Of a DNA stretch of 64,000 bases, positions 8,333-12,092 are shown piece by piece. Source of the stretch: Ruminococcus sp. (GTDB lineage Bacteria; Bacillota; Clostridia; Oscillospirales; Ruminococcaceae). The stretch covers positions 1 to 64,000 of the forward strand of contig JAFUTU010000040.1 of assembly GCA_017484095.1 (NCBI GenBank). The letters are read 5' to 3'. Numbering within the stretch: position 1 is the stretch's first letter; each line of letters opens with the position of its first letter. The position numbers and the translations under genes are program-made. The notes beneath the pieces were generated by a model. The model was not told the origin of the DNA, did no database searches, and saw only the letters and a program-made list of their open reading frames with translations.

Positions 8333-9718
8333 TCAGAACTCTATCTTCTTTGCGATATACGCTGTGAGCTCGTCTATCTTTACTCTTTCCTGAGCCATTG
8401 TGTCTCTGTCACGGATAGTTACACAGCCGTCTTCGAGGGAATCAAAGTCAAAGGTAACACAGAAAGGTGTGCCTATCTCGTCCTGACGGCGGTATCTCTT
8501 ACCGATAGAGCCTGCCTCATCATAGTCTACATTGAAGTTCTTGGCAAGCATATCATAGACCTCGCCTGCCTGCTCGGAAAGCTTCTTGGAAAGCGGAAGG
8601 ACACAAGCCTTGAACGGTGCCAGTGCAGGGTGGAAACGCATTACTGTCCTTACATCGGGCTTGTCCTCTGTGCCGATGTTCTCTTCGTCATAAGCCTCAG
8701 TAACTACGGTGAGGAAAAGTCTCTCAACGCCGAGAGAAGGCTCGATAACGTAAGGAACATATCTCTCGTTGGTCTCAGGGTCAAAGTAGTCAAGGGTCTT
8801 GCCTGAGGTGTTTATATGCTGAGTAAGGTCATAGTCGGTCCTGTCAGCTATGCCCCAGAGTTCGCCCCAGCCGAACGGGAAGAGATACTCAAAGTCGGTA
8901 GTTGCCTTGGAATAGAAGGAGAGTTCCTCCTTGGAGTGGTCTCTGAGCCTGAGGTTCTCTTCTTTGATGTTAAGGCTGAGAAGGAAGTTCTTGCAGAAGC
9001 TCCTCCAGTAATCGAACCATTCAAGGTCAGTATCGGGCTTGCAGAAGAATTCAAGCTCCATCTGCTCGAACTCACGCACTCTGAATATGAAGTTGCCCGG
9101 GGTTATCTCGTTTCTGAACGACTTGCCCACCTGTGCAACGCCGAATGGTATCTTTTTTCTGGTAGTTCTCTGGATATTCGAGAAGTTTACAAAGATGCCC
9201 TGTGCTGTCTCTGGGCGAAGATAAAGCTCGCTCTTGGTATCCTCGGTAATGCCCTGGAAGGTCTTGAACATAAGGTTGAACTGTCTGATATCGGTGAAGT
9301 TATGCTTGCCGCAATCGGGGCAGGGAATGCTCTTATCCTTGATATAGTCCATCATCTGCTCGTTTGACCAGCCTGCAACGTTGGTGCCGTCAAAGTCCTC
9401 GATGAGGTTATCCGCTCTGTGGCGTGTGTGGCACTCTTTACAGTCCATAAGAGGGTCTGAGAAGCCGCCAATATGGCCTGATGCTACCCATGTCTGAGGG
9501 TTCATAAGGATAGCGGAATCAAGGCCTACGTTATACTTGTTCTCCTGAATGAATTTTTTTCTCCAGGCAGCCTTGATATTGGTTTTGAGCTCCACGCCGA
9601 GGGGGCCGTAATCCCAGGTGTTTGCGAGACCGCCATAGATCTCACTGCCGGGATAAACAAAGCCTCTGCCTTTACAAAGAGCAACGATCTTTTCCATTGT
9701 TTTTTCAGAATTTTTCAT
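8333..9718 (-). CDS. glyQS: Glycyl-tRNA synthetase (dimeric, class II)
   Basis: A 461-residue enzyme that charges tRNA-Gly. It is the single-chain dimeric type, as in Gram-positives and eukaryotes, not the alpha2beta2 type. Visible class II features include [12 protein letters not shown] (motif region), FRNEITP (motif 2) and GVERLFL (motif 3), plus a CxxC pair in CKECHTRH and CPDCGKHNF, probably a zinc-binding insert. AAGGAGA precedes the ATG. No T-box leader is recognisable upstream; the intergenic DNA there is the long repeat described separately. Confidence 0.97.
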
Positions 9719-9746
9719 ATATATTCTCCTTAAAAATATTTTCTCG

Positions 9747-10034
9747 TGTCAGGCGCTCGCCGCGCGGCTATCTCGCTACTCTATGTACGGATTAGTAGCT
9801 ACAAATCTGCCCGAAGGGTAAGACCTGCAACCGACAAGTGCCCGACCTACGGAGTGCAAATGTTCGCGCAGCGTTACTATTTAATAGCTTTAAGCTAAAT
9901 TATCCCCCTACCCTCCGGGGAGGGCAAACAGTTTATTAATAACCAACTACTAAGAGAGGGGTGGGGGCGTCCTCCCCGTGCGGCGAGCACCGTGTCCAGA
10001 TGTCCAGTGTCCAAGAGGTATTATTTTATTTTTA
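9747..10034. repeat. Long intergenic repeat, copy 1 (MITE-like)
   Basis: A non-coding GC-rich block. Bases 9774-9877 are identical over 104 bp to 11875-11978, and the similarity continues, less perfectly, to the end motif GTGCGGCGAGCAC (9978-9990). Bases 9990-10034 are the inverted complement of 11810-11854 with one mismatch over 45 bp. The element is bounded by tandem TGTCCAG-type heptamers. No transposase is present, so it looks like a non-autonomous or extinct mobile repeat. Confidence 0.75.
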
Positions 10035-10035
10035 T

Positions 10036-10064
10036 TTGACAACACCTGTCATTTATGATATACT
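10036..10064 (+). promoter_or_regulatory. Promoter of the small hydrophobic peptide gene
   Basis: -35 TTGACA (10036-10041), 17 bp, -10 TATACT (10059-10064). Transcription should start near 10071, leaving a leader of about 60 nt. Confidence 0.75.
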
Positions 10065-10107
10065 TTCAACAAGGCGTATCGCAGATAACGGTAGGCGGTC
10101 AAATCTT

Positions 10108-10123
10108 CCTCCTGCAAGGGAGG
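10108..10123 (+). promoter_or_regulatory. Hairpin sequestering the peptide's Shine-Dalgarno
   Basis: CCTCC (10108-10112) is separated by six bases from GGAGG (10119-10123), which is the ribosome-binding site of the ORF at 10132. The stem would hide it. A second GGAGG in the 3' part of the transcript (10265-10269) could compete for the same CCTCC. Confidence 0.55.
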
Positions 10124-10131
10124 TGAGCAAA

Positions 10132-10218
10132 ATGGACGTTCTGGACGTAATAACATTACTTATCCTGATAACTGACATTGTTGCCCTCGTGGTAAACATT
10201 TGCAATAAGAAAAGATAA
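10132..10218 (+). CDS. Small hydrophobic peptide, putative holin-like type I toxin
   Basis: A 28-residue peptide, one predicted membrane helix (VITLLILITDIVALVVNIC) followed by a basic NKKR end. The size and pattern resemble the holin-like toxins of Firmicutes type I toxin-antitoxin loci. The ATG at 10132 has GGAGG 8 nt upstream, held in a potential hairpin. It has its own strong promoter. A convergent promoter on the other strand would make an antisense RNA covering its stop codon and 3' region. It sits between repeat elements upstream of proA. The peptide is too short for a sure family call; the architecture is the main evidence. Confidence 0.6.
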   Translation: MDVLDVITLLILITDIVALVVNICNKKR

Positions 10219-10300
10219 CCGCCCAAAAGCCACAGGACGGTTATCGTAAAAGATTAAACGTGTTGGAGGTGACCGCTTACTTGCGATACGCTCCTTTTAT
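10205..10300 (-). ncRNA. Putative antisense antitoxin RNA
   Basis: Inferred from a minus-strand promoter at 10307-10335 (start near 10300) and a minus-strand intrinsic terminator at 10205-10245 (stem GATAACCG / CGGTTATC, tail TTTTCTT). The RNA of about 95 nt would be complementary to the end of the small peptide ORF and its 3' region. Its 5' part repeats motifs of the peptide mRNA leader (GCGTATCGC, then GCGGTCA, then CTCC). Confidence 0.6.
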
Positions 10301-10306
10301 GGCTAT

Positions 10307-10335
10307 ATTATATCACATACTGATTCAATTGTCAA
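10307..10335 (-). promoter_or_regulatory. Promoter of the antisense RNA
   Basis: Minus strand: -35 TTGACA (10335-10330), 17 bp, -10 TATAAT (10312-10307), matching consensus at both hexamers. Confidence 0.75.
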
Positions 10336-10494: not shown

Positions 10495-11745
10495 CTATAC
10501 TCTTATCTGTCCGTTACCAGTTATCAAAAACTTAGTAGTTGTCATCTCTCTGAGACCCATAGGTCCTCTTGCGTGGAGCTTCTGGGTTGAAATGCCTATC
10601 TCTGCACCGAGACCGAACATTCCTCCGTCTGTAAATCTGGTGGAGCAGTTAACATATACAGCTGCGGAATCTACTCTCTTTTTGAATTCCTCTGCGGCCC
10701 ATACGCTCTCTGTAACTATACACTCAGAGTGCCCCGTTGAGAACCTTGCTATATGGTCCAGAGCTATCGACATATCCTCTACTACTCTGATAGCTATTAT
10801 ATAATCACTGAACTCTGTAGCATAGTCGTCATCATCGGCAAGCTTTATATCAGAGCCTAAGAAATGCCTTGTTATCTCACAGCCTCTTATCTCAACGTTA
10901 TGCTTATCGAGCCTTGCTTTGAGCTTAGGCAGGAACCTGTCTGCAACAGATGAATGAACAAGGCAGGTCTCTACAGCATTGCATACCGAAGGTCGTGAGG
11001 TCTTGCCGTTATCTACTATATCAACAGCCATATTGAGGTCAGCGCTCTGATCTACATAAACGTGGCAGTTGCCCGTACCTGTCTCTATAACAGGCACTGT
11101 AGCGTTCTCTACCACTGCCTTTATCAGCTGAGCCCCTCCCCTTGGGATAAGAACATCAAGAAACTCATTAGACTTCATCATATCCATAACTATAGAACGG
11201 TCTACGTTCTCTACGAGCTGTATTATATCGGGGCTGAAGCCTGAGAGAGACACTGCCTTTCTCATAAGATTTGCAAGCATCTTGTTAGAGCTTATAGCCT
11301 CTTTACCTCCTCTGAGGATAACTGCGCTGCCTGCTTTAAGGCTGAGGACAGCACCGTCTACGGTAACGTTAGGTCTTGCCTCATAGATGATACCTATAAC
11401 ACCCATAGGCACTCTTACCTTCTCTATCTTCATACCGTTCGGTCTGGTAGAGCCCTCCACTATCTCGCCTATAGGGTCAGCAAGCCCTACAAGCTCTTCA
11501 CATGAAGCAGCCATACCCTCTATCCTCGCAGGAGTAAGAGACAGTCTGTCTATAAGGCTCTCTCTCATGCCCATAGCTCTTGCCCTTTCGATATCCTCAG
11601 CATTGGCAGCAAGTATGTCTGCCTGTCTTTTCCTGAGGATATGAGCTATCTCCAGCAAAGCATCGTTCTTCTGCTGAGTAGATGCGAACGCCAGCTCATT
11701 CTTGCAGTTCTTAGCTCTTTCACCGAGTACGTCAAAATAACTCAT
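10495..11745 (-). CDS. proA: Gamma-glutamyl phosphate reductase
   Basis: A 416-residue NADPH-dependent dehydrogenase catalysing the second step of proline synthesis, from glutamyl 5-phosphate to glutamate semialdehyde. Family features are seen in GVIGIIYEARPNVTVDGA, SAVILRGGKEA and the catalytic cysteine region SVCNAVETCLVH. Length is standard. GGGGTGA precedes the ATG. proB lies upstream on the same strand, but a repeat element of about 280 bp separates them, so they may no longer share one message. proC is not in the window. Confidence 0.97.
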   Translation of the reverse strand: MSYFDVLGERAKNCKNELAFASTQQKNDALLEIAHILRKRQADILAANAEDIERARAMGMRESLIDRLSLTPARIEGMAASCEELVGLADPIGEIVEGSTRPNGMKIEKVRVPMGVIGIIYEARPNVTVDGAVLSLKAGSAVILRGGKEAISSNKMLANLMRKAVSLSGFSPDIIQLVENVDRSIVMDMMKSNEFLDVLIPRGGAQLIKAVVENATVPVIETGTGNCHVYVDQSADLNMAVDIVDNGKTSRPSVCNAVETCLVHSSVADRFLPKLKARLDKHNVEIRGCEITRHFLGSDIKLADDDDYATEFSDYIIAIRVVEDMSIALDHIARFSTGHSECIVTESVWAAEEFKKRVDSAAVYVNCSTRFTDGGMFGLGAEIGISTQKLHARGPMGLREMTTTKFLITGNGQIRV

Positions 11746-11809: not shown

Positions 11810-12092
11810 TAAAAATAAAATAATACCTCTTGGACATTGGACATCTGGACACGGTACTGCCGGACGGGCGGACACGCTACTCTATGTACGGATTAGTAGC
11901 TACAAATCTGCCCGAAGGGTAAGACCTGCAACCGACAAGTGCCCGACCTACGGAGTGCAAATGTTCGCGCAGCGTTACAGCGTGATAGCATCAAGCAAAG
12001 CTATCACCCTCCCCTCCGAGGGAGGGCAAACGGTTTAATAGTCTGAAACTACTGAAAGCGGGGTAGGGGCGTCCGCCCCGTGCGGTGAGCAC
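11810..12092. repeat. Long intergenic repeat, copy 2 (MITE-like)
   Basis: Second copy, lying between proB and proA. Bases 11875-11978 are identical to 9774-9877 and the block ends in GTGCGGTGAGCAC (12080-12092). Its left end, 11810-11854, is the inverted complement of the right end of copy 1. The two cores are in direct orientation. No ORF is supported inside. Confidence 0.75.

What the first reader, a model, noticed from the sequence alone, without database searches (positions are those of the whole stretch)
10073..10291. Mirror-image motif blocks suggest a Shine-Dalgarno switch
The peptide mRNA leader has GGCGTATCGC (10073-10082), GCGGTCA (10095-10101) and CCTCC (10108-10112). Their exact complements occur in reverse order downstream of the ORF: GGAGG (10265-10269), TGACCGC (10270-10276) and GCGATACGC (10283-10291). 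CCTCC can pair with the true Shine-Dalgarno (10119-10123) or with the downstream GGAGG. If the mRNA extends that far, 5'-3' pairing could free the ribosome site, and the antisense RNA, covering the downstream blocks, would restore the closed form. This differs from Fst-type loci, where the repeats are direct.
Basis: partly seen in the sequence, partly recalled or inferred. Interest (0 to 1): 0.65.

Follow-up and report, generated by a model that had tools for sequence, protein, structure and literature searches.

The report
Toxin mRNA that ties its ends
A tiny gut-bacterial gene, probably a membrane-peptide toxin kept silent by an overlapping antisense RNA, makes an mRNA whose first bases pair with its last bases; this pairing has been kept by matched mutations in dozens of related copies, so it is a real RNA element and not a chance repeat.

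Summary
The blocks are real. They belong to a type I toxin-antitoxin-like cassette in a Ruminococcus-type genome: sense promoter, 61-nt leader, 28-aa membrane peptide, and a convergent antisense promoter whose ~95-nt RNA covers the mRNA 3' part. About 85 homologues were found. In 20 non-redundant loci each leader fits its own tail (-45 kcal/mol on average; -31 for swapped partners; no permutation of 20,000 reached it). Inside the aligned blocks of 66 loci, mismatches are 69 G.U-type and 0 A.C-type, so selection acts on pairing within the mRNA, not on a DNA inverted repeat. Helix A starts 0-3 nt from the predicted mRNA start in 60 of 65 loci and ends 0-2 nt before a conserved T-run in 58. Same-genome copies keep leader, toxin and tail blocks (93-98%) but diverge in the antisense loop and linker (73%), probably the specificity region. 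5'-3' panhandles are known in Gram-negative type I toxins; I found none reported for this arrangement. Nothing was tested experimentally.

The parts
10036..10064 (+). sense promoter TTGACA-17-TATACT with TG before the -10; predicted start about 10071
   Evidence: 11 of 12 matches; same position in nearly all homologues
10071..10300 (+). predicted peptide mRNA, about 230 nt; ends are inferred
   Evidence: promoter and T-run after the last block
10073..10082 (+). helix A, 5' arm (pairs with 10283-10292)
10090..10101 (+). helix B, 5' arm GGTAGGCGGTCA (pairs with 10270-10281)
10108..10112 (+). anti-SD CCTCC: pairs either with the SD (local hairpin) or with the tail GGAGG (helix C)
10119..10126 (+). 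Shine-Dalgarno GGAGGTGA
   Evidence: spacing to ATG at 10132
10132..10218 (+). 28-aa membrane peptide MDVLDVITLLILITDIVALVVNICNKKR, stop included; pooled dN/dS of the family 0.17
10214..10245 (-). central hairpin: terminator of the antisense RNA, followed on the - strand by TTTTCTTATT (10213-10204); lacks a T-run on the + strand
10246..10264 (+). linker; 10246-10260 predicted single-stranded in both RNAs; with the hairpin loop (10225-10234) it is the stretch that diverges between same-genome copies
10265..10269 (+). helix C, 3' arm GGAGG; also 5' arm of the local 3' hairpin with CTCC 10291-10294
10270..10281 (+). helix B, 3' arm TGACCGCTTACT
10283..10292 (+). helix A, 3' arm
10295..10298 (+). 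T-run, probable mRNA 3' end
10307..10335 (-). antisense promoter TTGACA-17-TATAAT with TG (12 of 12 matches), predicted start about 10300
10205..10300 (-). predicted antisense RNA, about 95 nt: 5' hairpin (10294-10265), linker, terminator hairpin

Best explanation
The locus is a type I toxin-antitoxin-like cassette whose complete mRNA forms a three-helix 5'-3' panhandle. While the RNA is being made, the leader CCTCC holds the SD in a local hairpin, so the nascent mRNA is closed. Once the tail is made, helix A (first bases with last bases) and helix B tie the two ends together, which should shield both from exonucleases. Helix C lets the tail compete with the SD for CCTCC, so the complete, unbound mRNA is poised: mostly closed, part of the time open, giving slow toxin synthesis. 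The antisense RNA recognises its own mRNA through the hairpin loop and the single-stranded linker, zips through the tail, strips the panhandle, lets the leader close on the SD and makes a long duplex for RNase III. Shown here computationally: conserved anatomy, peptide under purifying selection, pairing of leader and tail in the mRNA sense. Inferred: transcript ends, end protection, poised opening, antisense action, toxicity.
For: Promoter pair and spacing conserved; co-evolution of leader and tail; G.U-type 69 against A.C-type 0 mismatches, 21 against 0 in 20 non-redundant loci; 48 distinct helix A pairs among 65 loci, starting 0-3 nt from the predicted start in 60; unguided RNAalifold on 40 mRNAs recovers helix B, the SD hairpin and the central hairpin with changes on both sides; panhandle adds 14.0 kcal/mol on average over the best fold without it; SD accessibility full / truncated / tail-masked 0.15 / 0.08 / 0.08, with 18 of 66 loci lower by more than 0.1 when masked and 1 higher; tail tracks the anti-SD; linker free in both RNAs and divergent between paralogues; dN/dS 0.17. 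Precedents: SR4 binding extends the SD-sequestering helix of bsrG (PMC6562991), the Fst mRNA's upstream helix stabilises it (PMC7472228), timP mRNA has mutually exclusive forms with the antitoxin disrupting the active one (PMC11228461).
Against: Predicted SD opening is small and depends on energy parameters; the 95%-identical paralogue on contig C9 is predicted mostly closed (SD hairpin 0.77). In helix-C-dominated loci the SD is partly re-caught by the coding sequence (0.30). The tail G-rich arm also pairs with the CCTC before the T-run, so its co-variation with the anti-SD is not wholly independent. No transcript, toxicity or antitoxin activity has been shown.
Confidence: 0.5

Rival explanations
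1. Panhandle as lock: as in hok and AapA, the complete mRNA is an inert, long-lived store; end pairing keeps it stable and closed, and an unknown 3' trimming step or loss of the antisense RNA is needed for translation.
For: 5'-3' long-distance interactions make full-length aapA mRNA translationally inert (PMC6733600); in 43 of 66 loci the SD hairpin exceeds 0.5 in the full-length ensemble.
Against: Removing the tail does not open the SD in prediction (0.08 against 0.15), so trimming would not activate by this route; helix C would then have no purpose although an anti-SD:tail match was found in all 65 loci examined.
Confidence: 0.3
2. Panhandle as terminator: helix A, made from the mRNA's own 5' end, is the stem that abuts the U-tract, so the transcript terminates through its own first bases.
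For: Helix A ends 0-2 nt before the T-run in 58 of 65 loci; in 23 of 66 loci the local 3' hairpin is weaker than -5 kcal/mol, while helix A averages -16 kcal/mol over all loci.
Against: In most loci, the window included (-10 kcal/mol), a local hairpin abuts the T-run; a stem spanning ~170 nt would have to form within the pause; some local values suffer from uncertain T-run placement.
Confidence: 0.2
3. Fst-like action: the antisense RNA's CACCTCC pairs in trans with the SD through the direct repeat GGAGGTGA.
For: The repeat exists in the window and the antisense RNA could pair there.
Against: Direct repeats of 8 nt or more in only 11 of 66 loci, mean 5.5 nt against 5.2 in swapped pairs; the repeat lies within the antisense RNA's own 5' stem.
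Confidence: 0.07
4. The blocks are a DNA-level inverted repeat (protein site, insertion relic) or serve only to give both RNAs the same 5' end.
For: Both RNAs do start with the same sequence.
Against: Mismatches are one-sided (G.U 69, A.C 0), which symmetrical DNA explanations do not give; 48 different helix A sequences exclude a fixed protein site.
Confidence: 0.03

Closest known systems
bsrG/SR4 and txpA/RatA of Bacillus subtilis (type I, 3'-overlapping antitoxin)
   Same: Convergent antisense RNA over the 3' part; SD held in a short G-C hairpin; in bsrG antitoxin binding at the 3' end tightens SD closure (PMC6562991).
   Different: No co-varying panhandle of the extreme 5' and 3' ends appears in the passages I read; the peptide here is below the Hol_Tox cut-off.
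hok/Sok and aapA/IsoA (5'-3' long-distance interaction)
   Same: 5' end of the toxin mRNA pairs with its 3' end, shown by co-variation; local SD hairpin while nascent (PMC6733600).
   Different: There the full-length form is inert and 3' trimming activates; here the tail competes with the SD for the anti-SD, so the predicted effect has the opposite sign; Firmicute peptide and 3' antisense RNA.
par/Fst family
   Different: No co-evolving direct repeats, no shared bidirectional terminator, no PXXXG motif.
timP/TimR
   Same: Full-length mRNA with mutually exclusive forms, antitoxin pushing it to the closed one (PMC11228461).
   Different: timP uses a pseudoknot; unrelated peptide and host.

Membership tests
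type I toxin-antitoxin system | small hydrophobic peptide, under 60 aa, conserved as a protein | tested here: met
   28 aa, dN/dS 0.17
type I toxin-antitoxin system | antisense RNA gene overlapping the toxin mRNA | tested here: met
   sequence evidence only: conserved consensus promoter and terminator
type I toxin-antitoxin system | peptide toxic and antisense RNA repressing it | not testable with these tools
   needs expression experiments
Hol_Tox (Pfam PF16935, TxpA/BsrG-like) | score at or above the Pfam cut-off (23.3 bits) | tested here: not met
   window peptide no hit; relatives checked 12.5-19 bits; best of 19 E 8.9e-4; own genome none over cut-off. Distant relationship possible.
Fst/Ldr (par) | direct repeats DRa/DRb shared by the two RNAs | tested here: not met
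Fst/Ldr (par) | bidirectional terminator shared by both RNAs | tested here: not met
   central hairpin has a T-run on the - strand only
Fst/Ldr (par) | PXXXG motif in the toxin | tested here: not met
   no proline in the window peptide or in the relatives aligned
hok/AapA-type 5'-3' long-distance interaction | 5' end pairs with 3' end with compensatory changes | tested here: met
hok/AapA-type 5'-3' long-distance interaction | full-length mRNA inert, 3' trimming activates | tested here: inconclusive
   predicted SD accessibility does not rise on trimming; not an experiment
hok/AapA-type 5'-3' long-distance interaction | antitoxin pairs with the 5' part of the mRNA | tested here: not met
   antisense RNA covers the 3' part

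The most novel reading that the evidence does not exclude
The mRNA's own 5' end is the 5' strand of its transcription terminator: helix A forms against the nascent tail directly before the U-tract, so only transcripts that carry the authentic 5' end are properly terminated and immediately closed into a panhandle, and the antitoxin works by undoing this structure.
Probability: 0.18. Interest if true: 0.82.

Novelty: new variant of a known kind. Interest (0 to 1): 0.6.

Why it matters
It supplies a large, co-varying family in gut Firmicutes in which three strands (anti-SD, SD, tail) compete, so the long-standing question of how type I toxin mRNAs stay silent while being made, yet can be translated later without processing, becomes directly testable. 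The conserved panhandle joined to a hypervariable antisense recognition region in same-genome copies also offers a natural experiment on how many antisense antitoxins avoid cross-talk.

Tried and rejected
A leader pattern run over 396 genomes was mis-written (one base too many) and gave background-like hits; its results were not used. The first 'no panhandle' energy used a constraint that removed too many pairs (-29 kcal/mol, worse than a truncated RNA); it was replaced by a split-fold estimate, and the T-run positions were likewise redone. First alignment had two loci in the wrong orientation. No matches in phage and plasmid collections by peptide. Rfam has no family here. The literature search was limited to open-licence papers, so an earlier description cannot be excluded. 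DNA inverted-repeat and Fst-like readings were tested and rejected.

Full report
What is there. Between a glycyl-tRNA synthetase-like gene (8333-9718, - strand) and a glutamate-5-semialdehyde dehydrogenase-like gene (10495-11745, - strand; both identified by me from the translations) lies a small cassette. A sense promoter TTGACA-17-TATACT (10036-10064) and a perfect antisense promoter TTGACA-17-TATAAT (10335-10307) face each other. Between them are a 61-nt leader, an ORF of 28 codons (10132-10218) and a tail. Chance is excluded: 0 of 2000 shuffled tails pair as well with the leader.

Homologues. The genome holds five copies. Peptide-profile searches gave 14 of 29 genus genomes at E up to 0.1 and 27 of 398 family genomes at E up to 0.001. 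The set was trimmed to 87 places, of which 66 have both consensus promoters at typical distances: leaders of 57 to 88 nt and antisense start 64 to 97 nt after the stop codon. The peptide is under purifying selection (pooled dN/dS 0.17).

The pairing is real and is an RNA pairing in the mRNA. In 20 non-redundant loci each leader pairs with its own tail at -45.0 kcal/mol on average, with foreign tails at -31.0; 20,000 permutations reach at best -37.3. Mismatches inside the aligned blocks were then classed by what they would be in the mRNA: 69 G.U-type and 0 A.C-type when flanked by two matches (66 loci), 21 and 0 in the non-redundant set. A DNA inverted repeat, or a need for both RNAs to share a 5' end, would give both types equally. 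Related loci are not independent events, so the binomial values overstate significance, but the one-sidedness stands in the non-redundant set. Unguided RNAalifold on 40 mRNAs recovers helix B, the SD hairpin and the central hairpin with two-sided changes; helix A is not recovered because its sequence is too variable to align in columns. Measured locus by locus, helix A has 48 distinct sequence pairs in 65 loci, begins 0-3 nt from the predicted start in 60, and ends 0-2 nt before a T-run in 58. Panhandle formation is worth 14.0 kcal/mol on average and never less than 4.4.

What it does to the Shine-Dalgarno. The leader CCTCC can pair with the SD or with the tail GGAGG. The tail is not a copy of the SD: at 43 positions where the SD hairpin has a G.U wobble, the tail offers a Watson-Crick partner at 31, and it is GAGGG or GGAGG according to the leader while the SD is GGGGG in both. 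The caveat is that the same tail arm also pairs with the CCTC before the T-run. Predicted SD accessibility is 0.15 full-length, 0.08 without the tail and 0.08 with the tail masked as by antisense RNA; 18 of 66 loci fall by more than 0.1 on masking and 1 rises. The SD hairpin remains the commoner state (0.55 against 0.27 for anti-SD with tail). In 13 loci where the tail wins, the SD is unpaired 0.27 of the time against 0.13 elsewhere, part of it re-caught by the coding sequence.

The antisense RNA. It has a 5' hairpin, a linker and a terminator hairpin. Its terminator U-tract is read from the DNA of the peptide's Lys/Arg-rich C-terminus. The longest stretch unpaired in both RNAs lies before helix C in all 65 loci measured; in the window it is 15 nt of the linker, GTAAAAGATTAAACG, 10246-10260. 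In 15 same-genome pairs with at least 85% CDS identity the leader is 96%, the CDS 98% and the tail blocks 93% identical, but loop plus right arm plus linker only 73%, against 64% for random cross-genome pairs. The promoter spacers (77-79%) diverge too, so relaxed constraint contributes; yet in pairs with 89% or more in both flanks (window and contig C9; the two G398 copies) the middle is still the most divergent part. I read it as the recognition region, kept different between copies.

Alternatives. Helix A against the U-tract has the geometry of an intrinsic terminator, and in 23 of 66 loci the local 3' hairpin is weaker than -5 kcal/mol; this supports the terminator reading but the window copy has an adequate local hairpin. 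The lock reading (hok/AapA) is the main rival for the sign of translational control. The Fst-like reading fails: direct repeats are no longer than in swapped pairs.

Relation to known systems. SD hairpins in txpA, bsrE and bsrG, 3'-overlapping antitoxins and SR4-induced closing of bsrG are described in PMC6562991; the RNase III route for txpA in PMC3531473; the 5' helix that stabilises the Fst mRNA in PMC7472228; the inert long-distance fold of aapA in PMC6733600; mutually exclusive forms in timP in PMC11228461. The combination here, a co-varying panhandle of the extreme ends, a tail competing for the anti-SD and a 3' antisense RNA, was not found in the open-licence library. Membership in Hol_Tox or Fst is not claimed. 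All mechanism beyond sequence and predicted structure is inference.

Noticed in passing
10202-10218: The codons of the peptide's basic C-terminus and stop are the reverse complement of the antisense RNA's terminator U-tract, so toxin tail and antitoxin terminator share the same DNA.
   Followed up: partly
9740-9990 and 11875-12092: An intergenic repeat with about 45 matches in this genome lies next to the cassette; similar-looking sequence flanks some homologues.
   Followed up: partly
L151/L152 (G526:C125), L118/L140 (G535:C46), L033/L041 (G001:C54), L142 (G398:C101): Tandem copies of the cassette, some with identical peptides, leaders and tail blocks but different antisense loops and linkers.
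   Followed up: partly
L168:1-1413: A viral contig carries the cassette directly upstream of a portal-protein gene (PHROG 12), so some copies travel in prophages.
   Followed up: partly
L034, L025: Apparently decayed copies: L034 lacks the leader and start codon, L025 has a frameshifted peptide; both keep the tail and antisense promoter, as expected if a toxin is lost before its antitoxin.
   Followed up: no
L028, L038, L043: Loci with the same GTAGGCGGT leader motif but different small hydrophobic peptides, suggesting that the RNA scaffold is combined with several peptides.
   Followed up: no
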